Part shown: one piece after another, positions 3,689 through 39,301 of the stretch | Layout: every line of letters starts with the position of its first letter | Position numbering within the stretch: position 1 is the stretch's first letter | Virus record (IMG/VR): IMGVR_UViG_3300032288_004702 | Span: 92,277-156,276 of that record | Length of the DNA stretch: 64,000 nucleotides | DNA from: a virus | Strand: one strand, 5' to 3' | The notes under the pieces: generated by a model | What the model saw: only the letters and a program-made list of their open reading frames with translations | What the model was told of the DNA's origin: nothing | Database searches by the model: none | Made by a program: the position numbers and the translations under genes

Positions 3689-3961
3689 TTACCTGCCGGC
3701 GGCCAGAAGTTCTTCGTGTTTTTCCACAGTTTCTAGATACGTGTCGACTACACGTATGAAAGTCGCAGAGAAAACCATCCGTGTAGCCATCGACATATCG
3801 TCGATTTTTTCGAATATTCCCCCCATGACAAGAAGCTTCTGTCTAACCGCATCCAGATTTTCTGCACGCTCTTCAGGAGCATAGGGATTACCAGTTATCT
3901 CGTCATAGAGAATTGCATCTTGCAACTTTTCGGCGAGGAGCTCTGAGTTAAAGTTTTCCAT
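3689..3961 (-). CDS. 90-aa hypothetical protein
   Basis: Soluble helical protein (NSELLAEKLQDAILYDEIT; later TYLETVEKHEELLA). Separated by 2 bases from the next leftward gene. The first GTAGATAA-type sites of the accessory region appear just upstream (about 3961-3990). Not recognised. Confidence 0.65.
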   Translation of the reverse strand: MENFNSELLAEKLQDAILYDEITGNPYAPEERAENLDAVRQKLLVMGGIFEKIDDMSMATRMVFSATFIRVVDTYLETVEKHEELLAAGR

Positions 3962-3989
3962 TTATCTAGTACCTGTCTTTTGAAGTTAT

Positions 3990-4253
3990 CTACTGGCCGC
4001 GCCGGCCGCGAAAACTTTTCCTTTTTTTGATTTTGTAGCCGGCGAGCTCGAGCTCTTCGATTACATGTGCTGGGATTCCCGCCCAAACGACGACACCTTT
4101 ATGTACCAGTGCACGTGCGATTGCTGCCTGCTTTCCTGGGAGTTCATCAATTCGTTGATGGAGCGCTGCCGGCGTGACGGGGTGTCTTGGAATCGGAGAG
4201 CTATTAAAAACTTCCCAGGGGTCAATGTCTTCGCGGTCTTCCACCACCGTCAA
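3990..4253 (-). CDS. 87-aa hypothetical protein with TTG start inside a conserved box
   Basis: Reading begins at TTG, preceded by AAGGAAAGG, and the first codons (Met-Thr-Val-Val-Glu) are the recurring DNA box TTGACGGTGGTGG. The body is helical (HQRIDELPGKQAAIARALV) with a basic tail (KIKKRKSFRGRRG). Because the box recurs upstream of unrelated genes, the first five residues may be dictated by DNA function. Family unknown. Confidence 0.6.
   Translation of the reverse strand: MTVVEDREDIDPWEVFNSSPIPRHPVTPAALHQRIDELPGKQAAIARALVHKGVVVWAGIPAHVIEELELAGYKIKKRKSFRGRRGQ
4239..4252 (-). promoter_or_regulatory. TGACGGTGGTGGAA box
   Basis: Exact copy on the minus strand, overlapping the TTG start of the 87-residue gene. 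No good -10 follows at 17-18 bp, so promoter function is doubtful here. Confidence 0.4.
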
Positions 4254-4262
4254 TCCCTTTCC

Positions 4263-4952
4263 TTAGATGTCTTTGGTTAAATCTAACAGAAACCAGCCAC
4301 GTTCCCACATCATGCCGATAGCCGAGTATCCGATGATGTCGGTGTATGTATCTGTTAGAGATTCATTGGCCGCCTTGCCGCTGCGCGCCAGATGCAGATT
4401 CTTCAATCTTGCGATTTTGTCATGTGTCCGGACAACCAGGCCTCGACGTCCAAAACGTGCAATATTGTGATGTCCGTAATCTGACTGCTTTCGAATCAGG
4501 GTTTCTGTGATGTCTTCCCGAATCATCCAACTATCGAAGACGCCGGCTGCGGATGCTGAATTATTTGAAATTTCTGGATGGCCGCCAGGGCCGCGGGACG
4601 GAAATAAATTCCCGTTTTTCATCCCAACAGCTGCAGCTATAGAACCGAGAATTCTCCATTCTTCAACCCAGTACATCTCGTCCGCCTGAAACCAGTCCAT
4701 GGTCTGGACCATTCCCTCAAAATGGTTATCTACCATCGAGAGTCCCTCGAGTACAGAATTTAAAAAATCGTCGATTTCTGCCGCCGGGCCGCTCGAGCTG
4801 ATAATTCTCTTTTTTCCGTTTTCTTCAAAGTTCCGGAGGTGCACCAGGGGTGCATCCGCTCTATTGAAAATCTCAGAAACGCAGATTGCTGCAGCTTCTT
4901 GCCAGCTCCTTGGGTGCTCTGGTTCGAGCTCTTCCACCACCGTCAACATCAT
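4263..4952 (-). CDS. DUF1599-like (nucleotide-modification associated) protein
   Basis: 229 residues. The C-terminal third (YGHHNIARFGRRGLVVRTHD, DKIARLKNL, then TDTYTDIIGYSAIGMM) matches a domain found in phages with modified nucleotides or nucleotide metabolism (DUF1599 / nucleotide modification associated domain 1). The N-terminal half is unrecognised. The tandem ATG start is followed at once by the TTGACGGTGGTGG box. Its role, perhaps in nucleotide pool or DNA modification, is inferred from the family only. Confidence 0.7.
   Translation of the reverse strand: MMLTVVEELEPEHPRSWQEAAAICVSEIFNRADAPLVHLRNFEENGKKRIISSSGPAAEIDDFLNSVLEGLSMVDNHFEGMVQTMDWFQADEMYWVEEWRILGSIAAAVGMKNGNLFPSRGPGGHPEISNNSASAAGVFDSWMIREDITETLIRKQSDYGHHNIARFGRRGLVVRTHDKIARLKNLHLARSGKAANESLTDTYTDIIGYSAIGMMWERGWFLLDLTKDI
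4932..4945 (-). promoter_or_regulatory. TGACGGTGGTGGAA box
   Basis: Falls three codons into the DUF1599-like gene, right after a GTAGATAA site at its start. Same orientation as all other copies. Confidence 0.4.
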
Positions 4953-4975
4953 TTATCTACCTTCGGACTTATCTA

Positions 4976-5437
4976 CTACTCCCCCGCCAGCAGGTCATCC
5001 CAGCTAGCAGGAGGGTTCGCCTTCATTTCCACTCTAACCATTTCGGCCAGCTCTTCCAACTGCCCAACCCAGAAAGCGTCGGAAACTCCAGGGAGCCCCG
5101 TCTTTTTTTCCATTGAATCGACGCTGTCGAGGCGCTCTGCAATGAAATCACGGGAAAAGGCAGCGATGATTGATTTGTCCCCAGCTCCACGCATGAGTAC
5201 TGGACCGCTTTGTCCATCCAAGGCCTCGGACGGAACATGTATCCCCGTCACAACATATTTGTTGTCATCTGTGAAAATGAAAATAATGTTGTTGTTCTCT
5301 TCGTCAACCAGGGAAAGCTGGCTAGCCACTTCGGCCGCCACGTCTTTCGAAATATCTGATTTTTCAAGCATCGCAATGAGCTCTTCTTTGTTGAATTTCT
5401 CTGAATTCCCCACTGGGTCCCAGTAGCTGTCTCTCAT
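4976..5437 (-). CDS. 153-aa hypothetical protein
   Basis: Start ATG (MRDSYWDP) has AAAGGA upstream and overlaps the stop of a zinc-ribbon gene by 4 bases. Helical segments (KEELIAMLEKSDISKDVAAE) flank a beta-rich middle (NNNIIFIFTDDNKYVVTGI). It ends in GAG-TAG where the TAG belongs to a GTAGATAA site. Not recognised. Confidence 0.7.
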   Translation of the reverse strand: MRDSYWDPVGNSEKFNKEELIAMLEKSDISKDVAAEVASQLSLVDEENNNIIFIFTDDNKYVVTGIHVPSEALDGQSGPVLMRGAGDKSIIAAFSRDFIAERLDSVDSMEKKTGLPGVSDAFWVGQLEELAEMVRVEMKANPPASWDDLLAGE

Positions 5438-5604
5438 ATTTTTTCCTTTTTTATTTCGTCGATGGCCGACGTCGTTTCGACGAAGCCAGGGATATGTGCT
5501 GGTAAACCACATAAATCGCAAATTGCGTTTGTCGAGCTCTGGGTTGAGTTTTTGATTTTCTCAAAAAGAACAGAGCCGCACTCGAGGCATTCGTGTGCTG
5601 GCAT
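5434..5604 (-). CDS. 56-aa zinc-ribbon mini-protein
   Basis: Two cysteine pairs (C-L-E-C near residue 6-9 and C-D-L-C near 29-32) form a classic zinc ribbon. Coupled by overlaps to genes on both sides (TGATG upstream, ATGA downstream). One of many Cys-rich mini-proteins here; partner unknown. Confidence 0.65.
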   Translation of the reverse strand: MPAHECLECGSVLFEKIKNSTQSSTNAICDLCGLPAHIPGFVETTSAIDEIKKEKI

Positions 5605-5837
5605 CAGGCTGGAGTCGCCGATGTCTCGAAAACCATGTAACCCTCAATGGCTGTGTGTCCCCAGTCGAGTGGGTCGCACTGAACAATGCCAGTAACCCAC
5701 GCTCTTTTAGGCATGGGCGCTAGTGGGTCTTCGCCGATTTCTTTTCGGACTTTTTCTATTGCGTCACCAAGTGCACGCTGCGGTGATTCTGACTCAACAT
5801 CAACACCGACCATTACCTGAACTCTGTAAGTAGGCAT
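5604..5837 (-). CDS. 77-aa hypothetical protein
   Basis: Starts at ATG (MPTYRVQVMVGVDVES) with GAGGAGGGG just upstream. Looks like a small alpha/beta fold with alternating strands (YRVQVMVGVDV) and a helix (ALGDAIEKVRKEI). Overlaps both neighbours by 1 base. Not recognised. Confidence 0.7.
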   Translation of the reverse strand: MPTYRVQVMVGVDVESESPQRALGDAIEKVRKEIGEDPLAPMPKRAWVTGIVQCDPLDWGHTAIEGYMVFETSATPA

Positions 5838-6016
5838 TACCCCTCCTCGTATTCGCATTTTTGACCATCGCAGCTGCCGTACTGTCTGCAAAAAACTGAA
5901 TAATTCAGGCAGTTCGGGTCACGTGAATCTTCCGCCTCAGGCTGGCTGCGCTCAGCTTTACGGCGTCCACGGGATTTACCTAGTTTGTAGACGACTAGGT
6001 GACTGACAAGTCCCAT
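5837..6016 (-). CDS. 59-aa Cys-rich basic protein
   Basis: A basic N-terminal half (KLGKSRGRRKAER) precedes a cluster C-x6-C-x5-C-x4-C that may bind zinc. The start shares bases with the stop of the next gene upstream (TAATG). Possible nucleic-acid binder; inference only. Confidence 0.6.
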   Translation of the reverse strand: MGLVSHLVVYKLGKSRGRRKAERSQPEAEDSRDPNCLNYSVFCRQYGSCDGQKCEYEEG

Positions 6017-6240
6017 TACTTATCTACTGCCTCTTCACTGACAGCCAGCGAGATGCTTTCCCACAGGTCGTTTTCGGGGTGTTCGTCAAACGCTTGACAA
6101 ATCTTCTCCCATGCTTCTTGGGTCAGTTCCACTTCGTCATCCGCTGAGTAGTCAAAGTCGCTCTTCGTGTAGACGACTGCGCAGATTTCCTCTGCGGGAT
6201 TCAGTTTCTGTAAAGCTTTGATGAGTGTTTGGACTTGCAT
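6016..6240 (-). CDS. 74-aa hypothetical acidic protein, leaderless candidate
   Basis: Sequence MQVQTLIKALQKLNPAEEIC is typical of small phage proteins with an N-terminal helix and an acidic middle. The last residues Val-Asp-Lys are encoded by an AGTAGATAAGT motif. The ATG lies 6 nt after the -10 of a near-consensus promoter. Family not assigned. Confidence 0.7.
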   Translation of the reverse strand: MQVQTLIKALQKLNPAEEICAVVYTKSDFDYSADDEVELTQEAWEKICQAFDEHPENDLWESISLAVSEEAVDK

Positions 6241-6246
6241 GACGAC

Positions 6247-6275
6247 ACTCTATCCACCACCGTCGGTTTTGTCAA
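6247..6275 (-). promoter_or_regulatory. Near-consensus leaderless promoter
   Basis: -35 TTGACA, 17 bp, -10 TAGAGT, then 6 nt to the ATG at 6240. Here the GACGGTGGTGGA box lies inside the spacer, where a bound protein would block or aid polymerase. Confidence 0.7.
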
Positions 6276-6355: not shown

Positions 6356-6730
6356 ATGGACAACAGCACAAAATTCAATATGTATGTGGAAGCCCTCGAG
6401 CTGTACATTTCAAAAAATGGAAATTCTAAAATTCCAGCATCACATGTTGAAATCGTAAATGAAAAAACAATTTCTCTTGGCGCATGGGCCGGATACATCC
6501 GTCAGAGATTTCGCAAAAATCAACTTCCCGCAGCACGTGTAGCCAGACTTGAACAAATCAACGGCTGGCAGTGGGGGCCATTTCAGCCAGGGCCGGCGAC
6601 GGATTCTGCAAGAAATGAATCAATTCGCGAGCTTCGCATTCAGGGCAAGTCTCTTCGGGAAATCGCAGATGAGTTTGATTTGTCGCGGCAGCGCGTACAT
6701 CAAATCATCAAAAAGATGAAAATTTCGTAG
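6356..6730 (+). CDS. Helicase-associated domain fused to sigma-region-4-like HTH
   Basis: 124 residues. Residues about 35-80 (LGAWAGYIRQRFRKNQLPAA, then RLEQINGWQWGP) match the helicase-associated (HA) domain, a small DNA-binding repeat. Residues about 88-122 (SIRELRIQGKSLREIADEF, then SRQRVHQIIKKM) form a helix-turn-helix like sigma region 4. The pairing suggests a DNA-binding regulator. It is among the few rightward genes in this part and lies next to the start of the motif-rich region. Good domain support; function inferred. Confidence 0.75.
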   Translation: MDNSTKFNMYVEALELYISKNGNSKIPASHVEIVNEKTISLGAWAGYIRQRFRKNQLPAARVARLEQINGWQWGPFQPGPATDSARNESIRELRIQGKSLREIADEFDLSRQRVHQIIKKMKIS

Positions 6731-6742
6731 GGCCGTCCGGTC

Positions 6743-6756
6743 TTCCACCACCGTCA
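6743..6756 (-). promoter_or_regulatory. TGACGGTGGTGGAA box
   Basis: Copy between two rightward genes, still in the minus orientation. No leftward gene follows directly. Confidence 0.35.
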
Positions 6757-6780
6757 TTAAGTTTCCGCGAGGGGGAAAAC

Positions 6781-7092
6781 ATGGTTTCTCAAAATTGGAA
6801 AAATACGAACAAAACTTCTGGGTCGTTTCCTCGGGCTTTCCGAGATTCGCCGATTTCGGGCGGGGCTCCCACCCCAAAGAAGGGTGGTCGTGACAGCCGG
6901 CGAGAGGGGAACGCATTTCTTGGATTTCTGTTGCTCGTCGGGATACACACCGTTCTGCTGTGGCTTGCCGTGCGTGTCGCAGAATCGGCAGGAATCGTGA
7001 CATGGAATGTCGGCTGGTGGGATTCACTGAAACTCGCCACGCTGTATGTCGTGTGGAAGGCTGTCGCTCTCATGGCTTGGAATCGCCACTGA
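6781..7092 (+). CDS. Two-span membrane protein, unknown
   Basis: 103 residues; GAGGGGG precedes the ATG. A soluble, basic first 40 residues is followed by two hydrophobic segments (FLGFLLLVGIHTVLLWLAV and LATLYVVWKAVALM). Topology would suit a holin or a membrane anchor. Not recognised. Confidence 0.55.
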   Translation: MVSQNWKNTNKTSGSFPRAFRDSPISGGAPTPKKGGRDSRREGNAFLGFLLLVGIHTVLLWLAVRVAESAGIVTWNVGWWDSLKLATLYVVWKAVALMAWNRH

Positions 7093-7213
7093 CGCACCGA
7101 GAGAGACTTATCTACTCCTAGTACCACTGGCGATACATGCATGCATGACGCATGCACCGAGCATGCCGTGAGCATGCCTGCCAGCACGAACAGGAGCAGA
7201 GTAGATAAGTGGG

Positions 7214-7360
7214 TCACGAGCGGTACTCTGCCCACGGGTCACGCCCTGCGCTCAACTCTGCCTGCTCCCATTCCAGCAACGCATACGCCCATGAATCGCA
7301 CTGTGCGCATGGACACTTGCTCTCATGTCCTTCGGGCTGTTCGGGTCGTGGTGTCCTCAC
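7214..7360 (-). CDS. 48-aa Cys-rich protein
   Basis: A KCPCAQC knot in mid-sequence and an aromatic tail (DSWAYALLEWEQAEL). The GTG start overlaps the TGA of the upstream gene by 4 bases, arguing that it is translated. Downstream (7093-7213) is spacer with GTAGATAA sites and GCATGC repeats. Confidence 0.55.
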   Translation of the reverse strand: MRTPRPEQPEGHESKCPCAQCDSWAYALLEWEQAELSAGRDPWAEYRS

Positions 7361-7596: not shown

Positions 7597-7760
7597 GTTA
7601 TCTACTTCCCCCCTTTCCCACTACCCCTTGCGGAGAATCAAAGGAGCGTGACTCTCACGCTCGGGGCAGTGGTGGTACACAGAGTAGATAAGTCTCTGTG
7701 ACCATTCCCCTCGGGCGGTGGTGGGTGTCCAAGCCCACCACCACCCTCTCGGGAAGTTAT

Positions 7761-9329
7761 CTACTCCCTCTCGGGGAGCGGTGTCCCCATGTGCTGATAG
7801 TAGATGTTTCGGAACATGTACGGATACACGCTCTGTGCTTTGCCGTTCACTTTGAGGTTGCGCAACTGCTCAATGGCTTCCTCAATGTGGGGAACCACGA
7901 TGTAGCGGTGCTGTCGTGCGTAGGTAATGCACTGCATGGCAAGCAGGTCGGAGAATCCGTCATTTGCTCCACACACTCCACCGTCTGTGACCCACACAAG
8001 CGGAGTGTTCTTGTATTGACGATTCTGAACGCCCCACTCAATAGCGGGGAAGTCCACGCCGTTGCCGTGTCCGTAGTCAATGTATTCCACATTCTCCACC
8101 ATGCGTCCCTTGTCTGCAACGACCCATGCGTTCGCACGGTCGCCAGTACCACGACCACGGTCGGAGTAGATGAGGACAGTAGCCCCAGGAGCGTTCTCAA
8201 TGATTTCTGCGATTTGCTCCGTAGTGAACGACATGGAACCGCTTGCGTCAATGATGACCATGCCACCACTGCCACGCACCGTCTTGTCAAAGACACGCTT
8301 TGCAGGGTCGGTCATGTAGCGGTGCATGCGCCGTGGGCGAATACCGACATTCGTGGCGATTCGCTTCTTGCCCATTGAGCCGTAGTGGTAGCGAGGCAAC
8401 GGTTCACGACTGACGACAAGTTCTGCCCACCGTGTCGCTCCACCGTGTTCTGCTGGTGTCACCTTGCCGTGTGGGTTTCCGTCCCTGTCGCCGTCCTTGC
8501 TTTCGCCTTCCTCGTACTCGGCAGAGTGTTCCTCTTGCTCGTCACCCGATTCGGACTTATCTACTCCCTTTGCGCCAGCCTTGCCAGCCTTCCCCTTCTT
8601 GGGGTCGTTCTTGCGAGACTTCGGCGGTGGGAATGAGGCGAGCCTGTCCACCCACTCTGCCATGCGCTCGGTGTGAATGAATCCGTATGGAGCGACACCC
8701 TCGTAGGTGTCGGTGCTTGCGAGTGTGCGTGTCTGATGAGCCTTGCGCATTTCCTTCACTGCTCGCTTGCCAATGTCCACAAGTGCGTCACCCCATGCTC
8801 GGTTGTGCCTGCGGATTCCGTTGAGGAATGGCTTGTGTCCAGCCGTGTTCGCCGTGGCGATACACATGGCAACTGCGCCTGCCCAGTCTCCCGACTGTGC
8901 AAGTTTCTCGCCTGTGGCGAGTTCGCTTCCGTCAGAGAGGTGCGTCTTGACATCAAAGCCAGCCTGCTGACAGAGGTAGTTCACTCGCAGTTCCTCAACG
9001 ACTGTCATGGCAGTCTCGGACGCAACAGAGCGACCGACAAAGACTTCCATTTGTTCGGTGGTCGGAGACACCTTCGCATGCATCATTTCGTGCGCACGAA
9101 CGACACGCTCCATTTCACCGTCCACGGACGGAGCGAACATGACACGGTGAGTGACATCAGTGCGAGGCTCGCCACGCACTGCACGGCAGTCCTCAACAGT
9201 CCAACGCTCATGGGCGAGGTCTTTACGACCAAGCATGTTCGGTTCAGGGCGGTGCGCCCCCTTCTCAGACTTATCTACCTGAGAAGGGAACGCCTTGCCC
9301 CTGCTGTTCTGTGCAGGAGAGAACGACAT
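7761..9329 (-). CDS. VWA-domain protein with HEMMH motif, MoxR partner
   Basis: 522 residues. A von Willebrand A domain near residue 355 carries the MIDAS motif DASGSMS. The N-terminal part has HEMMH (about 80), a zincin-like signature often seen in phage VWA proteins. A charged low-complexity linker (about 245-290) separates the halves and contains Val-Asp-Lys-Ser encoded by a GTAGATAA site; a second such site encodes VDKS near residue 19. The AAA+ gene ends 2 bases upstream. MoxR ATPase and VWA proteins pair as metal-dependent chaperone or remodelling systems; the phage substrate is unknown. Confidence 0.85.
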   Translation of the reverse strand: MSFSPAQNSRGKAFPSQVDKSEKGAHRPEPNMLGRKDLAHERWTVEDCRAVRGEPRTDVTHRVMFAPSVDGEMERVVRAHEMMHAKVSPTTEQMEVFVGRSVASETAMTVVEELRVNYLCQQAGFDVKTHLSDGSELATGEKLAQSGDWAGAVAMCIATANTAGHKPFLNGIRRHNRAWGDALVDIGKRAVKEMRKAHQTRTLASTDTYEGVAPYGFIHTERMAEWVDRLASFPPPKSRKNDPKKGKAGKAGAKGVDKSESGDEQEEHSAEYEEGESKDGDRDGNPHGKVTPAEHGGATRWAELVVSREPLPRYHYGSMGKKRIATNVGIRPRRMHRYMTDPAKRVFDKTVRGSGGMVIIDASGSMSFTTEQIAEIIENAPGATVLIYSDRGRGTGDRANAWVVADKGRMVENVEYIDYGHGNGVDFPAIEWGVQNRQYKNTPLVWVTDGGVCGANDGFSDLLAMQCITYARQHRYIVVPHIEEAIEQLRNLKVNGKAQSVYPYMFRNIYYQHMGTPLPERE

Positions 9330-9331
9330 GA

Positions 9332-10057
9332 CTACTTCACTCCGTCCACTGCGAGAGCGTCAAGAATCTGCTTGGCACGGTTGCCGAATGTCAGTTGGCA
9401 GGCTCGCTCCATTCCGACCGACTTGCGCAACTTGTCCAGTGCCATGAAAGCACGGAGAGAGATACGAGCCTCGCCACCGTCAGCCATGCGAACGGCATAG
9501 CCACGCAGGTCGGGAGACAAGCGGAGAAGTGCGTTCGGGTGCGGTTCGTTGATTCGGATACGAATGGGGAAACGGTCTGCGAGAGCCGTGGGCAGTTCGC
9601 TCATGTTCTCAATGTTCGTGGTCATCACGGCAGAGAATCCGTCAAGAGGGCGAACAGTCTCGCCAGTCTCGGGGTGCTGGAAGGAAGCCGATTCGGGAGA
9701 ATCCAGCATGGCGAGGAGTGTTGCGAACACATCGCCACCTGCCTTATCTACTTCGTCCACGATGAGGCGACCGCCCTTCGTGCCGTTGCCCTTCCATGCT
9801 TTGAGAGCCGAGCCGTCAAGCCACTGGAAGCCACCGTTCGCTGACGGCATGAAACCGCCCGTGACATCCATGTTGGTCATGTCCTCTGTGCAGACGAGGC
9901 GGTATGCGCCAGCCTCGGTGTCTCCGAACGACAGACCTGCGTAGGTCTTGCCAGTTCCAGCAGGACCGAACAGAATGATTCGGTCAATGCCTGCGTCAAG
10001 TGCGTCCTTGACATCTTGCCAGCACTGCGGAAGTGCTGTCTCTTGGGTGGTGTCCAT
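9332..10057 (-). CDS. MoxR-type AAA+ ATPase
   Basis: 241 residues from ATG with AAAGGAG upstream; an earlier in-frame TTG would run through the promoter and is rejected. Walker A GPAGTGKT lies near residue 35-42, Walker B IVDEVDK near 97-103, and sensor MTTN (AVMTTNIEN) follows. The Val-Asp-Lys after the catalytic Glu is encoded by a GTAGATAA motif. Likely partner of the downstream VWA protein. Confidence 0.88.
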   Translation of the reverse strand: MDTTQETALPQCWQDVKDALDAGIDRIILFGPAGTGKTYAGLSFGDTEAGAYRLVCTEDMTNMDVTGGFMPSANGGFQWLDGSALKAWKGNGTKGGRLIVDEVDKAGGDVFATLLAMLDSPESASFQHPETGETVRPLDGFSAVMTTNIENMSELPTALADRFPIRIRINEPHPNALLRLSPDLRGYAVRMADGGEARISLRAFMALDKLRKSVGMERACQLTFGNRAKQILDALAVDGVK

Positions 10058-10124: not shown

Positions 10125-10245
10125 ATCGCTTGACACCTTGTGGGGCAAGGGTTTCCGACTTATCTACTCTGTCTGTCTGCCGTGGTGCGCCCGACTTATC
10201 TACTCCTGCTGTGGGGTGGTGCGGTGGGTCTGCGCCGTGCGCCCG

Positions 10246-10354
10246 ACTTATCTACTATCCCCCCGTGCGCCCCTCGCCCACCTCGCCCTCGGGCGTGGAG
10301 CCCCGCTGTCTTTGGGGGTCTATTCGGGCCGGGGCTTCGAGCTACTTATCTACT
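10246..10354. repeat. Composite GC-hairpin element
   Basis: Bordered on both sides by ACTTATCTACT; core arms GGAGCCCCG and CGGGGCTTC. Lies in the 10058-10377 gene-free stretch, which also holds GTAGATAA sites at about 10158, 10193 and 10371. Confidence 0.75.
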
Positions 10355-10377
10355 CTGAAAGATGAAAGGAGACTTAT

Positions 10378-10866
10378 CTACTCTTCTTCGTCTTTGGGGT
10401 CTGAGATTCGCCACAGACCTTTCTTGACCTTGATGTAAAGCGGTGATTCGCTGATGTATTTCAGCGTTGTTTGGTATGAGAAACCAGAAACCTCAACAAG
10501 TTGTTCAGTGGTGTATTCCTCGCCCTTATGTTCGTCTGCCCATGAATCAAACTGGCCGTACTTGTCCTTGCGTCGTTCGGTCTTGATAACTCCAGTATTT
10601 ACTGCGTTCAGGTGCGAGAGGTATGACTTGATAAAGGTTGTTAGTACTTCTTCGCTAACGGAGTAGTAGCGGAGCATTGCTGTCGGGTTCCCATTACACC
10701 CTTCTCTTTGCCACTTCTCCATGACATACAGCGCACGGATAGTTTCCGCTATGCGCCATCTCTCTGCTTGGTTCGCATACCTGTCTTGTGGCTTCTTGTA
10801 CTTCTTGTCAAACTCTCCGTACAGCCGTGCGTTCTCTGCGTGTACGAACTCAATAGTAAAGTTCAT
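10378..10866 (-). CDS. 162-aa protein with winged-helix-like C-terminus
   Basis: The N-terminal half is helical and charged (YGEFDKKYKKPQDRYANQAE). The C-terminal segment (TTEQLVEVSGFSYQTTLKYI) reads as a helix-turn-helix. It ends EEE followed by a TAG supplied by the GTAGATAA motif. Possible phage transcription or replication regulator; weak family support. Confidence 0.65.
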   Translation of the reverse strand: MNFTIEFVHAENARLYGEFDKKYKKPQDRYANQAERWRIAETIRALYVMEKWQREGCNGNPTAMLRYYSVSEEVLTTFIKSYLSHLNAVNTGVIKTERRKDKYGQFDSWADEHKGEEYTTEQLVEVSGFSYQTTLKYISESPLYIKVKKGLWRISDPKDEEE

Positions 10867-12410: not shown

Positions 12411-12632
12411 CTACTTCTCTCCGAGCAGGTTGTTTACCGAAACTCCGAGAGCAGTGCTTACGGCGAGCAGTGTTGTCACGCTCGGTGCGAATCTTCCGTT
12501 CTCAATACGATTCACCGTCTTTCGGTCAAGCCCTGCACGGTTGGCAAGTTCCAACTGTGACCAGCCCTTCTCTGACCTGTGAACTCGTACTGATTCTGAG
12601 ATTTGCTCTGTTGATGTTGCTGATGTTCCCAT
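12411..12632 (-). CDS. Cro/C1-type HTH (XRE) repressor
   Basis: 73 residues, essentially one HTH domain: KGWSQLELANRAGLDRKTVN is helices 2-3, ending LGVSVNNLLGEK. GAAAGGAAT precedes the ATG and a GTAGATAACT site lies upstream. The only clear phage-repressor-type protein in the window, so a candidate to bind the repeated motif or promoters; that link is speculation. Confidence 0.88.
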   Translation of the reverse strand: MGTSATSTEQISESVRVHRSEKGWSQLELANRAGLDRKTVNRIENGRFAPSVTTLLAVSTALGVSVNNLLGEK

Positions 12633-13421: not shown

Positions 13422-13454
13422 TTGTCTTTCCCTTTCGGCTTGGTGGCTATTCGT

Positions 13455-13484
13455 ACTGTACCACCAGTCGGACAGACTTACATA
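13455..13484 (-). promoter_or_regulatory. Phage promoter, divergent -35
   Basis: Spacer AGTCTGTCC-GACTG-GTGG and -10 TACAGT are standard, but the -35 position reads TATGTA. A TGACGGTGGTGGAA box lies 9 bp farther upstream (13494-13507). Confidence 0.7.
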
Positions 13485-13493
13485 ACTTCGCTC

Positions 13494-13507
13494 TTCCACC
13501 ACCGTCA
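13494..13507 (-). promoter_or_regulatory. TGACGGTGGTGGAA box
   Basis: Just upstream of the divergent-35 promoter; may compensate for its weak -35 as an activator site. Confidence 0.4.
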
Positions 13508-13577
13508 TTGAGTTATCTACTCTCGTTCGGGTCTGCGGGATTTATCTACCAGCCCCCCGACCTGCGCCTTCCCCCCA

Positions 13578-13698
13578 ACTTATCTACTACCCCCCCGCTC
13601 CGCGCCCCCACCGCCCCTCGGGACGGAGCCCCGGCTCGGTTGCGCAATGCGGGGCTCCAAGCTGGAACCCAACGAACGAGTGAAAGAAGTTATCTACT
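13578..13698. repeat. Composite GC-hairpin element
   Basis: Left ACTTATCTACTACCCCCCCG; core GGAGCCCCGG with GCGGGGCTCC; right edge AGTTATCTACT, which also gives the TAG stop of the gene at 13694. An extra ATTTATCTACC copy precedes it at about 13541. Confidence 0.75.
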
Positions 13699-17499: not shown

Positions 17500-17946
17500 T
17501 TAGAGGTACTTCACCACGCTGTGGTAGGTGCTGGTGGACACCACTTCTTGGTCGGACATTTCCAGCACTCGGATAGCGTTCTCCAACGCTTCCTTGTCCT
17601 GACGGTACTCCCACTCCTTGTAGAGGTCAGGTCGCTGTGGCTCTGCCACGAGGATTGCCTTCGGAACTTCCAGCACGAGTTCCACATTGGTTGTCGTGTC
17701 GTTCCTGTCGGAATGGTGACGGTAGTAGTGGGTCTCGGTTGCCTTCTTGGGCTTCGCCTTGCCGTTCTTGACGAGGGCGACAACAGCCTTCGTGAAGTCG
17801 GCTTCCCACTTGGCGTGAGCCTTCTCAAAGTCGGCTTGCGACTTGTCGTTGGTGGCAAAGCGTTCCTCACGCTCTGCGAGTGCCTTACGCAAGGCAGAGA
17901 TGAGAACGCTCACCTTCACCTTGACGCTGATGTTCTTGTTGGACAT
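17500..17946 (-). CDS. 148-aa hypothetical protein
   Basis: Helical N-terminus (VSVLISALRKALAEREERF), basic centre (VKNGKAKPKKATETHYYRHH) and a beta-rich second half (TTTNVELVLEVPKAILVAEP). Single-gene cassette with its own promoter and terminator. Family unknown. Confidence 0.74.
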   Translation of the reverse strand: MSNKNISVKVKVSVLISALRKALAEREERFATNDKSQADFEKAHAKWEADFTKAVVALVKNGKAKPKKATETHYYRHHSDRNDTTTNVELVLEVPKAILVAEPQRPDLYKEWEYRQDKEALENAIRVLEMSDQEVVSTSTYHSVVKYL

Positions 17947-17990: not shown

Positions 17991-18020
17991 ACAGTACCAC
18001 TCGTTGGACAGACTTCCCAA
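17991..18020 (-). promoter_or_regulatory. Phage promoter for 148-aa gene
   Basis: -35 TTGGGA, AGTCTGTCC, -10 TACTGT; GTAGATAACT motif directly abuts the -35. Confidence 0.83.
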
Positions 18021-18147
18021 AGTTATCTACTACTCCCCCGCGTTCGGTTTGCCCGTGTTTGGAGTGGAGCCCCGGCTGTTCGCCGATAGTCGCGGGGCTT
18101 CTGCCCCAAAGTCGGGCTGGCGTGGCGTGGGGGGTTGGTAGATAAGT
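18021..18147. repeat. Composite GC-hairpin element
   Basis: AGTTATCTACTACTCCCCCG left; core GGAGCCCCGGCTG with CGCGGGGCTTC; right GGGGGGTTGGTAGATAAGT. 18148-18249 holds the TTTCCCAC tandem repeat and an overlapping double motif at 18226-18243. Confidence 0.8.
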
Positions 18148-18769: not shown

Positions 18770-18806
18770 GTTGTTCCCCTTTCGGAATGGTTGGTAGGAC
18801 ACCGTC

Positions 18807-18836
18807 AGCGTACCACGCTGGGGACAGGCTTCCCAA
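18807..18836 (-). promoter_or_regulatory. Phage promoter for 155-aa gene
   Basis: -35 TTGGGA, AGCCTGTCC, -10 TACGCT; motif directly upstream, then a TGACGGTGGTGGAA box at 18854-18867. Confidence 0.83.
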
Positions 18837-18853
18837 ACTTATCTACTCGGTTC

Positions 18854-18867
18854 TTCCACCACCGTCA
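18854..18867 (-). promoter_or_regulatory. TGACGGTGGTGGAA box
   Basis: Lies 17 bp upstream of the promoter -35, beyond the GTAGATAA motif. Last copy in the window. Confidence 0.4.
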
Positions 18868-18910
18868 TTCATTTGAGAGAGTGGGCAGAGACAGCCCTTG
18901 GGAAATCCCG

Positions 18911-19064
18911 ACTTATCTACCACGCCCCCGTGTGGTGGCTCGCCCCAGCCCCAGCCCCCGTTCGGGGTCGGAGCCCCGGCGTCTCCAAGCGAAGCGGGGC
19001 TCCTGCCCCAACTTTGGGTCAGACGAACAGGTGTTCGGTCTGTGGGGTCGGGGACTTATCTACT
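18911..19064. repeat. Composite GC-hairpin element
   Basis: ACTTATCTACCACGCCCCCG left; core GGAGCCCCGGCG with GCGGGGCTCC; right ACTTATCTACTCCCCC, which itself pairs with GGGGGAGTAGATAAG at 19085-19099 as a 15-bp hairpin. Confidence 0.78.
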
Positions 19065-19108
19065 CCCCCAATGGAAAGGGGGGCAGGGGGAGTAGATAAG
19101 ACCCGAAC

Positions 19109-19138
19109 GCCTAGCCCTACGGTGTGGTAGGGCGAGGC
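19109..19138 (-). terminator. Hairpin after the LysM-like gene
   Basis: GCCTCGCCCTAC, 6-nt loop, GTAGGGCTAGGC on the minus strand; overlaps the last codons of the gene. Confidence 0.55.
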
Positions 19139-19413
19139 GAGGCTATGGGCAGGTGAATGGTCTGCCATGTGTCTATGTCCGTGCCGTACATGGCTACGAG
19201 TGTGTCAATGACGGCAGACACTTCGCCCGAACAATGGGCGTGGGCGATGTCGTAGATAGTGTCCCCACTCTCCACATTCACGGTAGGCGTATCGCACGAG
19301 TAGCGAGGTGGCTCGGTCACTTGACGGACAGACCACAAGGCGACCCACGCTAGGGCGATGATGAGAGGCGAGAACACCACGAAACGGCGCACGATGAACT
19401 TATCTACTCTCAT
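19117..19413 (-). CDS. Membrane-anchored LysM-like protein
   Basis: 98 residues: MRVDKF (codons 3-5 are a GTAGATAAG site), one membrane span (VVFSPLIIALAWVALWSV, about 11-29), then a LysM-like domain (VNVESGDTIYDIAHAHC then MYGTDIDTWQTIHLP). LysM binds peptidoglycan, so the product would sit in the membrane facing the wall. The ATG overlaps the upstream stop by 4 bases. Confidence 0.72.
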   Translation of the reverse strand: MRVDKFIVRRFVVFSPLIIALAWVALWSVRQVTEPPRYSCDTPTVNVESGDTIYDIAHAHCSGEVSAVIDTLVAMYGTDIDTWQTIHLPIASPRPTTP

Positions 19414-25025: not shown

Positions 25026-25628
25026 ATGAAGGTATTGGAAGTCAGCGCACGAAAGGGTGGCGTCGGCACAACGACTGTGGCCTGCGCTCTCGCACTCAAA
25101 CTCGCAGAGCACAACCGAGACAAGGTTCTGCTCATTGACACTTCGGAGAACACCGAAGCGTTCTCTGTTCTTGGCGTCGCAAACCCCATTGGGCGAAACT
25201 CCATCTCGTTCGGTGAGCACAACCTGACAGTCGTGAACATTCCACTCGCAGAAGTGAACAACGGCCTGTCTGTCTCGCAATACGAGTTCGTCGTCATTGA
25301 CGCTGGCAAGAGTGAAGTAGATAAGTCATACTTCGGCCTGACTCCGTTCCGTGTGGCCGTCGTGCGTAACTCGTACCTCTCACTTCGGGCCGAGTCCATA
25401 ACACGAGCGAGCAAAGACGCAGTCGTCTCCATTCACGACGACAAGAATGTCCTGACTGTCGGTGACACCGAGAATGTGCTTCGTGGGTCAGCCGTTACCG
25501 TTCTCCCTCTTGACGAGGCCATCTCTCGTGCCATTGACGCAGGCCTGTTCTCGTCTCGTGCGAACCTGTGGAGCAAGACGGCAGACGAGTTCGTTCGTCG
25601 TCACGAACTCTCCACGGCCTCGGTCTAG
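25026..25628 (+). CDS. ParA/MinD-like ATPase with atypical Walker A
   Basis: 200 residues. The P-loop RKGGVGTTT (9-17) keeps the signature Lys of deviant Walker A but has Thr where the second Lys normally is, as in some TadZ/CpaE-type proteins. LLIDTSE (about 35-41) and FVVIDAG (about 89-95) are the Walker A' and B strands. A GTAGATAAG site encodes VDK right after Walker B. No ParB is visible. Could position phage or plasmid DNA or be a regulatory pseudo-ATPase. Confidence 0.78.
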   Translation: MKVLEVSARKGGVGTTTVACALALKLAEHNRDKVLLIDTSENTEAFSVLGVANPIGRNSISFGEHNLTVVNIPLAEVNNGLSVSQYEFVVIDAGKSEVDKSYFGLTPFRVAVVRNSYLSLRAESITRASKDAVVSIHDDKNVLTVGDTENVLRGSAVTVLPLDEAISRAIDAGLFSSRANLWSKTADEFVRRHELSTASV

Positions 25629-26280: not shown

Positions 26281-26321
26281 CCGTAGGGGAGTAGATAAGT
26301 CCCCTATCGGAGTAGATAAGT

Positions 26322-26351
26322 TTCGGAAGTCTGTCCTACCCGTGGTACATT
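26322..26351 (+). promoter_or_regulatory. Phage promoter for winged-helix gene
   Basis: -35 TTCGGA, AGTCTGTCC, -10 TACATT. Two direct GTAGATAAGT copies (26291, 26312) precede it with no GC core. Confidence 0.84.
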
Positions 26352-26386
26352 ATGGGTAGCCACCAACCAACCGAAAGGAACGGCAC

Positions 26387-26650
26387 ATGAAACAGCGCAA
26401 AGTGTTCACACACGAGGAAGTCATCGCACTTCTCTGCTCGCCTAGCCCGAAGGCAGAGGCAGTCCTGCTCTATCTGACGACAGTCAAGCAGGCAACGACA
26501 GGCGAGATAGCGAAGGCTCTCTGCTGGGACAAGAGCAACACGGGTCGCAGGCTGGAAGCACTTGCCGAGGACGGATTCGTAGAGTGCGTAGACGACAGCC
26601 ACCACGAGGGCAACAGGGGTCGCCCTGCCCGACTGTGGAGAGTCCTCTAA
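26387..26650 (+). CDS. Winged-helix (MarR/ArsR-like) DNA-binding protein
   Basis: 87 residues. Helices LLYLTTVKQATTGEIAKALC and KSNTGRRLEALAEDGFVECV, then RPARLWRV wing, are a textbook winged helix. Leader carries CCAACCGAAAGG. Likely a phage regulator; binding site unknown. Confidence 0.8.
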   Translation: MKQRKVFTHEEVIALLCSPSPKAEAVLLYLTTVKQATTGEIAKALCWDKSNTGRRLEALAEDGFVECVDDSHHEGNRGRPARLWRVL

Positions 26651-26661: not shown

Positions 26662-26810
26662 ACTTATCTACTCCCCATGCGCCGACCGTGGTGGAGTAGA
26701 TAAGTCACCCACGGGGCGAGTTCGGGGCGGGAGCCCCGGCTGGACAGCCGAGCGCAGCGGGGCTTCTTCCCGGAACTCGGCCAGAGCACACGGGGGGGTC
26801 GTAGATAAGT
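26662..26810. repeat. Composite GC-hairpin element with extra motif hairpin
   Basis: First a hairpin ACTTATCTACTCC / GGAGTAGATAAGT (26662-26706), then core GGAGCCCCGGC with GCGGGGCTTC and right edge CGGGGGGGTCGTAGATAAGT, which overlaps the -35 by one base. Confidence 0.82.
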
Positions 26811-27759: not shown

Positions 27760-28122
27760 ATGGCAACACAAAAGAAGAAGCCCGCGACCAAGAAGGTCGT
27801 AGCAAAGAAGAAGCCAGCAGCCAAGAAGCCGGCGAAGAAAGCACCGGCAAAGAAGGCCGCCGCCAAGAAGGCCGCCGCCAAGAAGGCTGTCACGAAGAAG
27901 GCTCCCGCCAAGAAGACGCCGGCCAAGAAGGCTGTCGCGAAGAAAGCCACCGCCAAGAAGGCGGCTATCCCCAGCAGAAAGGCAAAGACCATCTCAAGCT
28001 CTGCCACCGCAACTTCCACGTCATCCAGCGCTACACGTGTGAAGATTTCCCCAATCACGAAGACCAGCACCACGTCGTCCGTCCCTGGCGCGAAGGTCAC
28101 TTACAAAGTCATCAAAAAGTGA
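27760..28122 (+). CDS. Lys/Ala-rich histone H1-like protein
   Basis: 120 residues. Residues 1-75 are tandem KKAPAKK/KKAAAKK-type repeats as in histone H1 and bacterial HU-tail or Lsr2-like DNA compactors. The Ser/Thr-rich end (SSATATSTSSSATRVKISPI) is different. AAGGAGAG precedes the ATG. Probably binds DNA nonspecifically; a phage nucleoid or anti-silencing role is inference. Confidence 0.82.
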   Translation: MATQKKKPATKKVVAKKKPAAKKPAKKAPAKKAAAKKAAAKKAVTKKAPAKKTPAKKAVAKKATAKKAAIPSRKAKTISSSATATSTSSSATRVKISPITKTSTTSSVPGAKVTYKVIKK

Positions 28123-36442: not shown

Positions 36443-36474
36443 TGGATTCCCTTTCCGTTTGAGGTGGCACCATG

Positions 36475-36880: not shown

Positions 36881-37344
36881 TGCGTCTCCTTCGATAGTTC
36901 GTCACGAGCATAGGGGTTGTGTGGCTCGTCGTCATGCCACTGTGCGTCAGGCCATGCGGTACGCGTGTGTACCCCGTAGACGTTCTTGCCAAAGATGGCA
37001 GTTCCCTGCCAAGCGTGGCGACAGCACGGCAGTGCGTCGTCTCGTCCTGCTGGGTGGCAGTTCTGACCAATGTCTTGGGCGAGGAGGGGGAAGACATCGA
37101 GGAACTTCACTACACAGTCGTGACACAGAATCCACTCACGGCTGCGCTGGCTTCCTGTCAGGACACCAACGTTGTCATCGAATCCACCGTAGTAGCCGAA
37201 CGTGTCAAAGGGGAGCACCCAACCATGGTCGGGGTAGTGGGTCTGCTGGGTACACAGGAGACTGCTACGACAGGCTGAGCATGTCGCTGTGTTGTACTGC
37301 CTGATGAGTGGCGTGAACTCGGGTTGCTGTTGTGCTTCGCTCAT
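36877..37344 (-). CDS. 155-aa Cys-rich hypothetical protein, leaderless candidate
   Basis: Start MSEAQQQPEFTPLIRQYNTA, 7 nt after the -10. Cys pairs near CSAC, CHDC and PCC suggest zinc. Aromatic centre (FDTFGYYGGFDDNVGVL). Not recognised. Confidence 0.7.
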   Translation of the reverse strand: MSEAQQQPEFTPLIRQYNTATCSACRSSLLCTQQTHYPDHGWVLPFDTFGYYGGFDDNVGVLTGSQRSREWILCHDCVVKFLDVFPLLAQDIGQNCHPAGRDDALPCCRHAWQGTAIFGKNVYGVHTRTAWPDAQWHDDEPHNPYARDELSKETQ

Positions 37345-37351
37345 GACGATG

Positions 37352-37381
37352 ACTGTACCACGAGATGTACAGGCTTCCACG
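37352..37381 (-). promoter_or_regulatory. Leaderless phage promoter
   Basis: -35 CGTGGA (weak), AGCCTGTACA, GTGG, -10 TACAGT, 7 nt, ATG at 37344. Confidence 0.75.
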
Positions 37382-37457
37382 TTCGCGCACTTATCTACTA
37401 CTCACCCGTAGAGCACCCGTGGCACTTGCGTCGTCCCTGCGTGGTGGCGAACGGAGA

Positions 37458-37832
37458 CTAGGAGACGATTCGTCCTGAGGTCATGCGGAGGAGAACGGCA
37501 TAGCAATACCTCCGGCGTCGCGTCGTCTCCAACTCAACCTCGTACCGTCGCCAACCGCTGAGCAGGTCGAGGTCGGCGGGGGAACGGTAGATGCCGAGCT
37601 CCATCTCCGTCTCTATCATGAGGGAGGGGAGGTTCACCTCAACACCCGTGGCACTTCGCGGTGTCACACCTGCGTCACGGCAGGCCTGAAACACTTTGGT
37701 CATGAACAGAGAGACGGCGAGCATCTGCTCCAACTCGTCCTCGTCTGTCATGTGGGTATTCGTCAGGCGTGCTACGCGGATGCTCTGATACACCTTGCGA
37801 TGAGGTATGTAGATGCCTGACACGAATGACAC
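37458..37832 (-). CDS. 124-aa hypothetical protein
   Basis: GTG start assumed; an internal ATG (MTDEDELEQM) is an alternative. Helical middle (EQMLAVSLFMTKVFQACRDA) and Arg-rich C-terminal strand region (ELETTRRRRYCYAVLLRM). Contains one copy of the ACCCGTGGCAC repeat. Not recognised. Confidence 0.6.
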   Translation of the reverse strand: MSFVSGIYIPHRKVYQSIRVARLTNTHMTDEDELEQMLAVSLFMTKVFQACRDAGVTPRSATGVEVNLPSLMIETEMELGIYRSPADLDLLSGWRRYEVELETTRRRRYCYAVLLRMTSGRIVS

Positions 37833-37860
37833 AGTACACGCTATGTGCGTGTGTGTCCCT

Positions 37861-38034
37861 CTATCCCCACTTCACTTCCTTCGTCTGCTTGTCGTTCGGC
37901 TCGACAGCAAGCACTTCGAGCATGCTTCCCTGCGTGAGTAGCGAGCGCACCATTGACAGTGCTTCGTCGATGTTGGCTGGGGCGTCGAGGTCATTGCGCT
38001 TGCGCACTGCCACGGTGATTCGGTATGTCTCCAT
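37861..38034 (-). CDS. 57-aa hypothetical protein
   Basis: Start METYRITVAVRKRNDLDAPA, alpha/beta, then LSMVRSLLTQGSMLEVLAVE. Follows the next gene by 2 bases as an apparent pair. Confidence 0.62.
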   Translation of the reverse strand: METYRITVAVRKRNDLDAPANIDEALSMVRSLLTQGSMLEVLAVEPNDKQTKEVKWG

Positions 38035-38036
38035 GC

Positions 38037-38246
38037 TCAGTACCATACAGCCTTCCACAGGCGTGCGACACTCTGTGCCTGCTGAGGGGTCTGACATGGG
38101 ATGCGTCTGATGACGTGTCGTGTCCCCTCTGAGGTGGGCACGGACAGCCACACTTCCACGTCATCGCCAATGGCATTGACATGGGTGACTGTCCCTTCTG
38201 ATGAGAGGTCGTTGATGGATGAGGTCAGTAGGTCTGATGCGTTCAT
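38037..38246 (-). CDS. 69-aa hypothetical protein, leaderless candidate
   Basis: Start MNASDLLTSSINDLSSEG. Beta-rich (VTHVNAIGDDVEVWLSVPTS) ending in a helix with RLWKAVWY. The ATG is 7 nt past a -10. Its 5' frame extends further but through the promoter. Confidence 0.65.
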   Translation of the reverse strand: MNASDLLTSSINDLSSEGTVTHVNAIGDDVEVWLSVPTSEGTRHVIRRIPCQTPQQAQSVARLWKAVWY

Positions 38247-38253
38247 GGGTATG

Positions 38254-38281
38254 ACACTACACGAGGGGTGGTACATGTCAA
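38254..38281 (-). promoter_or_regulatory. Leaderless sigma70-like promoter
   Basis: -35 TTGACA, 16 bp, -10 TAGTGT, 7 nt, ATG at 38246. Lacks the CTGTCC block and the GTAGATAA motif. Confidence 0.6.
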
Positions 38282-38327
38282 GGGGTGTCATGATGATGAG
38301 TGATGTCAAGGGGGTAGGGTTACCCGT

Positions 38328-38534
38328 ATGACACCCGTGGCACCTCGCAAACCTTCACGCTCTACCTCTCCCCTCATGCGCCTATGGGTGGGGTGGGCTA
38401 GGTGGTGCGATGCTCAGTGGGTGAGGTGGGTGCGCTGGGTCGATGGCATCGGGCTCGAACCTGTTGCGCTGACCATTGCCATTGTGTGCCTCGTCATGGG
38501 GGTAATGGTGTTGCTCTCTATCGGGCGTGTGTAG
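38328..38534 (+). CDS. 68-aa single-span membrane protein
   Basis: Basic, Trp-rich N-terminus (LWVGWARWCDAQWVRWVRWV) and a C-terminal membrane span (ALTIAIVCLVMGVMVLLSIG). TAGGGT lies 7 nt before the ATG, so possibly leaderless. Coding is plausible, not proven. Confidence 0.5.
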   Translation: MTPVAPRKPSRSTSPLMRLWVGWARWCDAQWVRWVRWVDGIGLEPVALTIAIVCLVMGVMVLLSIGRV

Positions 38535-38658
38535 AACTACCCGTGGCACCTGCGCTCATCGCAAGGCTTGACACACTGCGCCTCGCATGGCGCAACGATG
38601 GGGGTGGGTTATCTACTCGGGTCGGTGCGTGATGCGTGCGTGCCGGCGTGCGTGCGTG

Positions 38659-38823
38659 TCACTCGCTCGTGCCTGCGTGCCATCGCCATGCGCGACACTC
38701 TCGCTTGCTCTGCGCCTTGCGTGCGTCGGGGATAGTGCTTGCCTTCATGCGCACACCATCGGCAAACGAACGACGTTCGTCTGCTGACCACTTCGGTTGT
38801 GCGATGTGCTTGCGCTTACTCAT
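38659..38823 (-). CDS. 54-aa basic protein, leaderless candidate
   Basis: MSKRKHIAQPKWSADERRSF then AQSKRECRAWRWHAGTSE. GGTACACT ends 6 nt before the ATG, the same geometry as other leaderless genes. Very basic; may bind nucleic acid. Confidence 0.5.
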   Translation of the reverse strand: MSKRKHIAQPKWSADERRSFADGVRMKASTIPDARKAQSKRECRAWRWHAGTSE

Positions 38824-38829
38824 GCGTCA

Positions 38830-38835
38830 AGTGTA
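38830..38835 (-). promoter_or_regulatory. Extended -10 of the 54-aa gene
   Basis: TACACT preceded by GG; no clear -35 or CTGTCC block. Confidence 0.4.
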
Positions 38836-39060
38836 CCTGTGATGTCCCTGCGTTCGTGCGTGCTTGCGTGTGCGTCGCACTGCGTGTGCTGACGTGTTGC
38901 GTTCGACTGCGTTGCTCTTGCGTGATGCGTTCGCATGTCGCACTGCGTTGCCTGCTTGCTGTGGGCGTGTCGCATCGCGTTGCCTTCGCACACGCCTGCG
39001 CTCACCCAAGCCCGAGCCCGAGGTGTACGCACCTGCTCTCGCCTTGCGTGATGCCGACTT
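38836..39060. repeat. TGCGT-rich low-complexity spacer
   Basis: Dense TGCGT/GCGTT/CGTGCG words without a convincing gene; similar composition already starts at about 38620. It ends at a GTAGATAA site (39058). The 38824-39301 stretch has no other visible feature apart from an AT-rich run at about 39215-39258. Confidence 0.55.
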
Positions 39061-39301
39061 ATCTACTACTGCCCCACTCGCTCGCGTCGCCTGCTGAGGC
39101 GTGCGCTCACCACTGCGTTGCGCGCTCGGATGAGGGTGCGCATGACGTCGCTGAGAGGGGGTGGTCAGGAGCCCCGCGCGCCTTGACCGCGTGTCCCCAC
39201 AGCAGGGGGGAGCCAAATTTGAAATTTTTGAGTTCAACTTTTTTTATATAAATTTATCCAGCCCCCTTGTGTTTGCCCCCTGTGGGGTGTAGTCTGCCGT
39301 C

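What the first reader, a model, noticed from the sequence alone, without database searches (positions are those of the whole stretch)
3961..39068. A dispersed 8-11 bp motif (core GTAGATAA) marks gene borders across one 35-kb region only
By hand I count about 110 copies of GTAGATAA or its complement between 3.96 and 39.07 kb; roughly one is expected by chance. I saw none in 0-3.9 kb or 40-64 kb. Most copies read AGTAGATAAGT or GTAGATAACT and sit within a few bases of a stop codon, start codon or -35. Both orientations are common. The density looks like a phage-wide operator, boundary or recombination signal rather than a mobile element: no copy carries an enzyme and flanks differ. Mycobacteriophage stoperators and the start-associated sequences of other actinophages are the closest known ideas, but the sequence is different.
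Basis: partly seen in the sequence, partly recalled or inferred. Interest (0 to 1): 0.93.

Follow-up and report, generated by a model that had tools for sequence, protein, structure and literature searches.

The report
Dense stoperator-like site array in actinophages
One 35-kb stretch of an uncultured bacterial virus carries about 113 exact copies of a short directional DNA word at the borders of its small genes, and related viruses carry the same array spelled differently at every site, which is best read as a dense set of binding sites through which the virus controls a whole block of its genes.

Summary
GTAGATAA occurs 115 times in the window (0.9 expected), 113 of them in 3.96-39.07 kb; only 2 further copies lie outside the ~40-kb block in the 156-kb record. 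One-mismatch copies are at chance level (20 vs 19.5), so the word is kept exact. Copies avoid coding sequence (17 of 117 inside genes, 81 expected), cluster at stop codons, terminators and just upstream of one conserved promoter type, and point with transcription (intragenic 57:12, codirectional intergenic 199:58, stop-overlapping 42:0, promoters 58:0, over five related genomes).

Relatives carry the same array in other spellings (GTGTAGGTAAGT, GGTAGATAAGT, AATAGATAAGT, CTAATAGATAACT, ACTAGATAAGT; a more diverged TGAATAAAGATAGCG). Orthologous positions switch together, even inside genes where this changes amino acids (GVDKS/GVGKS/GIDKS/LIDNS).

Best reading: an asymmetric operator/'stoperator'-like array bound by a phage regulator that controls or silences the early small-gene block. 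It works like Cluster A mycobacteriophage stoperators but is not shown to be a member: no repressor homologue, no integrase, region-limited, about six times the density. The regulator is not identified; best lead: the HA+HTH protein at 6356-6730. New variant of a known kind.

The parts
3961..39068 (.). Motif array: 113 exact copies of GTAGATAA (consensus AGTAGATAA[GC]T) in a block of small genes, GC mostly 0.52-0.61 against 0.46-0.50 elsewhere
7684..7764 (-). Pair of copies facing each other (7757 -, 7684 +) on either side of a terminator-like hairpin after the 522-aa gene; the same pair at 73-76 bp spacing, in the lineage's own spelling, in G001, G002, L019 and L023
8557..8564 (-). Intragenic copy in the sense strand of the 522-aa gene; at the same codons relatives read GVGKS (GTAGGTAAG), GIDKS (ATAGATAAG) and LIDNS/PIDNS (ATAGATAAC)
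10160..10381 (-). Densest cluster: five copies in 222 bp upstream of the AAA ATPase/metallopeptidase genes; G001 and G004 also have clusters beside this gene pair
17991..18030 (-). Typical promoter unit: motif (18023-18030), then TTGGGAAGTCTGTCC-N5-GTGGTACTGT, then the start codon of gene 17500-17946 about 50 nt downstream
26291..26386 (+). Promoter unit on the + strand with two motif copies (26291, 26312) directly upstream of the promoter of gene 26387-26650
26664..26703 (+). Inverted pair (R then F, 32 bp apart) between a stop codon and the AGCCCC...GGGGCT terminator-like hairpin
6356..6730 (+). Candidate regulator A: 124 aa, N-terminal helicase-associated-like domain plus C-terminal HTH (SLREIADEFDLSRQRVHQI), conserved across the family, on the strand opposite to its neighbours
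12411..12632 (-). Candidate regulator B: 73-aa Cro/CI-type (XRE) HTH protein, found in all six lineages with a variant of this word but also in unrelated phages without an array
10378..10866 (-). Candidate regulator C: 162-aa protein with a conserved C-terminal HTH-like segment (assigned by eye), conserved across the family

Best explanation
The copies are asymmetric binding sites for one sequence-specific, probably phage-encoded DNA-binding regulator, used like the operators/stoperators of Cluster A mycobacteriophages. Bound next to the -35 region of the block's promoters it controls initiation; bound at stop codons, around terminators and at a few places inside genes, in the orientation of transcription, it stops or insulates elongating RNA polymerase. 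The result is coordinated control, most likely silencing, of the 35-kb block of small presumably early genes. Shown: the array, its exactness, placement, orientation bias, confinement and coordinated lineage-specific re-spelling. Inferred: that a protein binds DNA at these sites, that it represses rather than activates, and that the regulator is phage-encoded.
For: Exact array confined to one block. Avoidance of coding sequence: 17 of 117 inside genes against 81 expected, p 3e-34, repeated in four relatives. Orientation with transcription: intragenic 57:12, although the sense orientation is open in only one of three frames and the antisense in all three; codirectional intergenic 199:58; stop overlap 42:0; at the conserved promoter 58 forward, 0 reverse. 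Concerted switching: with the motif masked, 49 window sites align across to G001; 20 carry GTAGGTAA, several promoter-type sites carry a GCAGGTAAGT-like form, and only 4 keep GTAGATAA. Codon-aligned intragenic sites follow the lineage's DNA word at the cost of amino acids. Two inherited coincidences, RFVDKY at 1197 and the Walker-B-like DEVDKA at 9744, do not switch. The two arms of inverted pairs vary independently at position 9, as separate protein sites would. Cluster A stoperators have published properties of the same kind: asymmetric, aligned with transcription, in promoters and short intergenic gaps or over gene ends, with phage-specific consensus tracking the repressor (PMC9283540, PMC6550527, PMC13313380).
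Against: No regulator identified and no binding or expression data. No homologue of two Cluster A repressors by tblastn on the record or phmmer on the proteins of the block; only a 35-residue HTH similarity of candidate A (hhalign probability 36.5%). No tyrosine integrase or large serine recombinase, so lysogenic silencing is not supported. About a fifth of codirectional intergenic copies run against transcription. Forward-only copies just upstream of -35 would also suit an activator. The recognition-helix residues of candidates A and B hardly differ between lineages whose words differ.
Confidence: 0.55

Rival explanations
1. Promoter-coupled activator element: a phage activator (comparable to T4 MotA or a class II activator) binds the word next to -35 and turns on the block; the non-promoter copies are secondary or have another use.
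For: 58 of 78 promoters of the conserved type have a forward copy within 60 bp and none a reverse copy; the motif-to-minus-10 distance clusters at 21-22 bp in the window, 13-14 in G003 and 25-28 in G004. More distant relatives have lineage-specific repeats that are themselves promoter elements.
Against: In the window only 18 promoters carry a site while 117 copies exist; most copies lie at stops, terminators or inside genes. Spacing to the promoter varies with no helical phasing.
Confidence: 0.17
2. RNA-level signal: the sense copy is read in mRNA (AGUAGAUAAGU) by an RNA-binding protein or nuclease at gene borders, for example for processing or anti-termination.
For: Orientation bias with transcription, also inside genes; location at stops and, for about 10 copies, 0-4 nt before starts.
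Against: Reverse copies are also conserved and re-spelled (7684, 11209, 17402). Hairpin pairing is not maintained: the two arms vary independently. The promoter-associated copies lie upstream of the start of the transcript they adjoin.
Confidence: 0.12
3. Exchange or uptake signal: a short word promoting recombination of small gene cassettes, kept exact and re-spelled by molecular drive, analogous to dialects of the DNA uptake sequence in Neisseriaceae.
For: Exact copies without degenerate ones, intergenic and terminator-flanking inverted pairs, lineage dialects, and gene content that differs between relatives in units bounded by the motif. DUS share dialects and terminator-associated inverted pairs (PMC3630211).
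Against: Orientation follows transcription, with forward-only copies beside promoters, which exchange signals do not need; D29 stoperator cores are also nearly free of one-mismatch copies (21 exact, 3.7 one-mismatch above expectation), so exactness does not single out this model; no uptake route is known for a phage.
Confidence: 0.1
4. Chance, composition or codon-usage artefact.
For: A few coding copies are plain VDK codons (1197, 9744).
Against: 115 versus 0.9 expected, non-coding location, and concerted switching.
Confidence: 0.01

Closest known systems
Cluster A mycobacteriophage stoperators/operators (L5, Bxb1, D29, Trixie) and Rhodococcus Cluster CA stoperators
   Same: Short asymmetric word, many copies, in promoter regions and short intergenic gaps or over gene ends, one predominant orientation relative to transcription, phage-specific consensus differing between relatives; in D29 the same counting gave 24 of 25 sites in one orientation relative to the arms and only 4 inside genes.
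   Different: Different word; 113 copies in 35 kb (3.2 per kb) against 25 in 49 kb of D29 (0.5 per kb); confined to one block; a minority of reverse copies and inverted pairs around terminators; no homologous repressor and no integrase found.
Start-associated sequences (SAS/ESAS) of Cluster K mycobacteriophages
   Same: Dispersed asymmetric word mostly in one orientation, in non-structural genes (PMC3203893).
   Different: SAS lie 3-7 bp before start codons and contain the ribosome-binding site; here only about 10 copies lie 0-4 nt before a start, and most are at stops, terminators or promoters.
DNA uptake sequence dialects of Neisseriaceae
   Same: Exact short word, inverted pairs near terminators, lineage dialects (PMC3630211).
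   Different: Here in a phage, limited to one block, with orientation tied to transcription and forward-only copies at promoters.
T4 MotA boxes (from memory)
   Same: Repeated element next to promoters of one temporal class.
   Different: Most copies here are not at promoters and the spacing to -10 is variable.

Membership tests
Cluster A-type stoperator system | Many copies of a short asymmetric word, mostly outside coding sequence | tested here: met
Cluster A-type stoperator system | Predominantly one orientation relative to transcription | tested here: met
   intragenic 57:12, intergenic 199:58, stop overlap 42:0, promoters 58:0
Cluster A-type stoperator system | Some copies in promoters (operators), most not promoter-associated | tested here: met
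   18 promoters with a copy, 117 copies in all
Cluster A-type stoperator system | Consensus changes between related phages | tested here: met
   six lineages with spellings of this word, plus a more diverged word in L146
Cluster A-type stoperator system | Homologous immunity repressor (N-terminal HTH plus C-terminal DNA-binding domain) | tested here: not met
   RedRock and Trixie repressors give no credible hit; only the HTH segment of the 6356-6730 product resembles theirs
Cluster A-type stoperator system | Temperate phage with integrase or parABS | tested here: inconclusive
   no PF00589 or PF07508 match; a ParA-like gene (25026-25628) and a ParB-like hit exist but were not shown to form a partition system
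Cluster A-type stoperator system | Bound repressor blocks elongation depending on orientation | not testable with these tools
   needs a reporter assay
Cluster K SAS | Within a few nt of start codons and containing the ribosome-binding site | tested here: not met
   about 10 of 119 copies lie 0-4 nt before a start
Mobile element / transposon array | Copies carry conserved flanks or an enzyme | tested here: not met
   no strong conservation beyond about 4 bp on either side
Uptake/exchange signal (DUS-like) | Exact word with lineage dialects and inverted pairs at terminators | tested here: met
Uptake/exchange signal (DUS-like) | Promotes uptake or recombination | not testable with these tools
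   needs experiment

The most novel reading that the evidence does not exclude
A regulatory system unrelated to known stoperator repressors in a widespread family of large uncultured actinophages, in which a regulator and more than 100 exact sites re-spell together between lineages, with sites also insulating terminators; at the extreme, the sites are kept identical by an active homogenising process (drive or exchange) and not by binding selection alone.
Probability: 0.3. Interest if true: 0.8.

Novelty: new variant of a known kind. Interest (0 to 1): 0.62.

Why it matters
It gives a clean natural case of regulator and binding-site coevolution: about 100 exact sites per genome and several dialects across closely related phages, with protein-constrained coincidences as built-in negative controls. 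It extends stoperator-like control beyond Cluster A-type temperate phages to a family of large uncultured phages, probably of Actinomycetota, and makes testable how a multi-site operator set can change spelling as a whole.

Tried and rejected
RNA hairpin reading of inverted pairs: arms vary independently at position 9 and flank matching is barely above random pairs. Mobile-element reading: no conserved flanks. Known RNA family: Rfam finds only tRNAs. XRE protein as sole marker of the array: it also occurs in phages without a dense motif, and G005/G008 lack it yet have a dense promoter repeat. Finding the regulator by residues specific to lineage II: no candidate stands out. PDB fold search of candidate A: no significant match. 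Near relatives among named phages: none by DNA or by the 522-aa protein; the terminase is about 42% identical to Gordonia phages. The same motif pair elsewhere in viral contigs: two small AT-rich contigs with one palindrome each, not followed. Helical phasing of the promoter distance: none seen by eye; no formal test run. Exactness as proof of a drive mechanism: weakened by the D29 control. Actinobacterial MAG contigs with a distant 522-aa homologue: no dense motif in those examined.
Full report
Observation. GTAGATAA or its complement occurs 115 times in the window; dinucleotide shuffles give 0.88 (maximum 4). 113 copies lie in 3961-39068. The window is bases 92277-156276 of a 156,276-bp virus record; the whole record has 119 copies, only two of them outside 91.6-131.4 kb. 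The block is richer in G+C (mostly 0.52-0.61 against 0.46-0.50). In the block there are 117 exact copies, while all 24 one-mismatch words together occur 20 times, exactly what base composition predicts (19.5). The flanking preference is short: A before (96/117), G or C then T after; beyond about 4 bp there is no strong conservation, so no element is attached.

Placement. Only 17 of 117 copies lie fully inside coding sequence where 81 would be expected (p 3e-34), and the same holds in four relatives. Copies overlap stop codons (16 in the window; 42 in the five genomes, all on the gene's own strand), flank AGCCCC...GGGGCT terminator-like hairpins singly or as inverted pairs, and sit next to a conserved promoter, TTGGGAAG[TC]CTGTCC-N5-GTGGTACNNT, whose start codon is usually 15-55 nt downstream. 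A recurring unit is visible: gene, stop with a copy, one or more copies, terminator, copy plus promoter, next gene.

Orientation. Copies run with transcription: intragenic 57:12, codirectional intergenic 199:58, at the conserved promoter 58:0. The intragenic bias is stronger than it looks: the sense word contains stop codons in two of three frames, while its complement is open in all three.

Relatives. The 522-aa gene at 7761-9329 led to 80 loci in uncultured virus contigs, the Cro-like protein to 80 more. The array exists in several spellings: (A)GTAGATAA[GC]T (window, L019-L025), GTGTAGGTAAGT (G001, G002), GGTAGATAAGT (G003), AATAGATAAGT (G004), CTAATAGATAACT (L034-L038), ACTAGATAAGT (L153-L160) and, more diverged, TGAATAAAGATAGCG (L146). 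In G001 and G004 most copies lie in a comparable ~36-kb block. With the motif masked and the flanks aligned, 49 window sites are spanned by alignment to G001: 20 carry GTAGGTAA, several promoter-type sites carry a GCAGGTAAGT-like form, and 4 retain GTAGATAA. Inside genes the switch is visible codon by codon: at 8557 the same five codons read GVDKS, GVGKS, GIDKS or LIDNS/PIDNS as the DNA word changes; 15747, 19400, 19729 and 31071 behave likewise in the lineages that align. Two copies that protein sequence explains, 1197 (RFVDKY) and 9744 (DEVDKA, Walker-B-like), do not switch. This is selection on the nucleotide word itself, shared by all sites, and calls for a trans-acting reader that changed with it.

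Mechanism. Strong alignment with transcription, promoter adjacency, stop and terminator placement and lineage-specific re-spelling are published properties of Cluster A stoperators, where a monomeric repressor with two DNA-binding domains reads an asymmetric site and blocks initiation or elongation depending on site orientation (PMC9283540, PMC6550527, PMC13313380). As a positive control the same kind of counting in D29 gave 25 sites, 24 in one orientation relative to the arms and 4 inside genes. My best explanation is therefore a stoperator-like array controlling, most likely silencing, the small-gene block. That a protein binds, that it represses and that it is phage-encoded are inferences. 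The reverse copies, several of which are also conserved and re-spelled (7684, 11209, 17402), suggest blocking of polymerase from both sides around terminators. An RNA hairpin role is not supported, because the two arms vary independently at the G/C position.

Regulator. Three DNA-binding candidates are conserved in the block. The product of 6356-6730 has a helicase-associated-like domain and a C-terminal HTH, predicted by AlphaFold as folded parts joined by a lower-confidence linker (mean pLDDT 88, pTM 0.58); it is present across the family and its HTH resembles the N-terminal HTH of the RedRock repressor over 35 residues (hhalign E 3.7e-4, probability 36.5%), a weak lead. The Cro-like 73-aa protein is found in all six lineages with this word but also in phages without an array. 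The 162-aa protein at 10378-10866 is conserved, with an HTH-like C-terminal segment by eye. Recognition-helix residues hardly vary between lineages in the first two, and a search for residues specific to lineage II singled out none. The regulator is unidentified.

Membership. No Cluster A repressor homologue, no tyrosine integrase or large serine recombinase, a region-limited array and a density of about 3.2 per kb against 0.5 in D29: it works like stoperators but I do not file it as a member. Start-associated sequences are excluded as a general description by position. A DUS-like exchange signal shares exactness, dialects and terminator pairs (PMC3630211) but not orientation; exactness alone does not decide, since D29 stoperator cores also have few one-mismatch copies.

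Host. No named phage is close; the terminase is nearest to methanogen-virus and Gordonia phage terminases at about 42-44% identity, WhiB-like genes are present, and distant homologues of the 522-aa protein occur mostly in contigs of Actinomycetota MAGs. The host is probably an actinobacterium; this is inference.

Noticed in passing
L043, L053, L073, L084; records G005 and G007 (relatives of the window): More distant relatives have other lineage-specific dispersed repeats that are themselves near-identical promoters (e.g. G005 TTTGTCGGTTAGGGGTGGG-N6-TAANNT, L084 TTGACA-spacer-TATACT with a conserved spacer), so one-promoter-per-gene early blocks with a lineage-specific element seem general in this family.
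   Followed up: partly
G001, e.g. counterparts of window 16288, 18913, 21123, 33661: Promoter-associated sites form a second subclass: GCAGGTAAGT-like in G001 where other sites read GTGTAGGTAAGT; in the window these sites have a 5' flank like CACGGGGGNGT instead of GA.
   Followed up: partly
window intergenic regions, e.g. 13422-13693 and 18770-19409; many related loci: A second recurrent element, TGACGGTGGTGGAAGA-like, lies in intergenic DNA throughout the family.
   Followed up: no
window 52873-62058 (-): A single ORF of 3061 aa; the rest of the record has two more giant ORFs (2401 and 2977 aa).
   Followed up: no
window 27760-28122 (+): 120-aa lysine/alanine-rich protein like histone H1/HC2 (KKPAKKAPAKKAA repeats) inside the block.
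   Followed up: no
window 6731-7356: About 600 bp with no confident gene between candidate regulator A and the next gene, with two motif copies (7108 -, 7201 +).
   Followed up: no
window 25026-25628 (+): ParA-like ATPase gene, weakly conserved between relatives (37-48% identity) and with the most lineage-II-specific residues of the genes compared.
   Followed up: no
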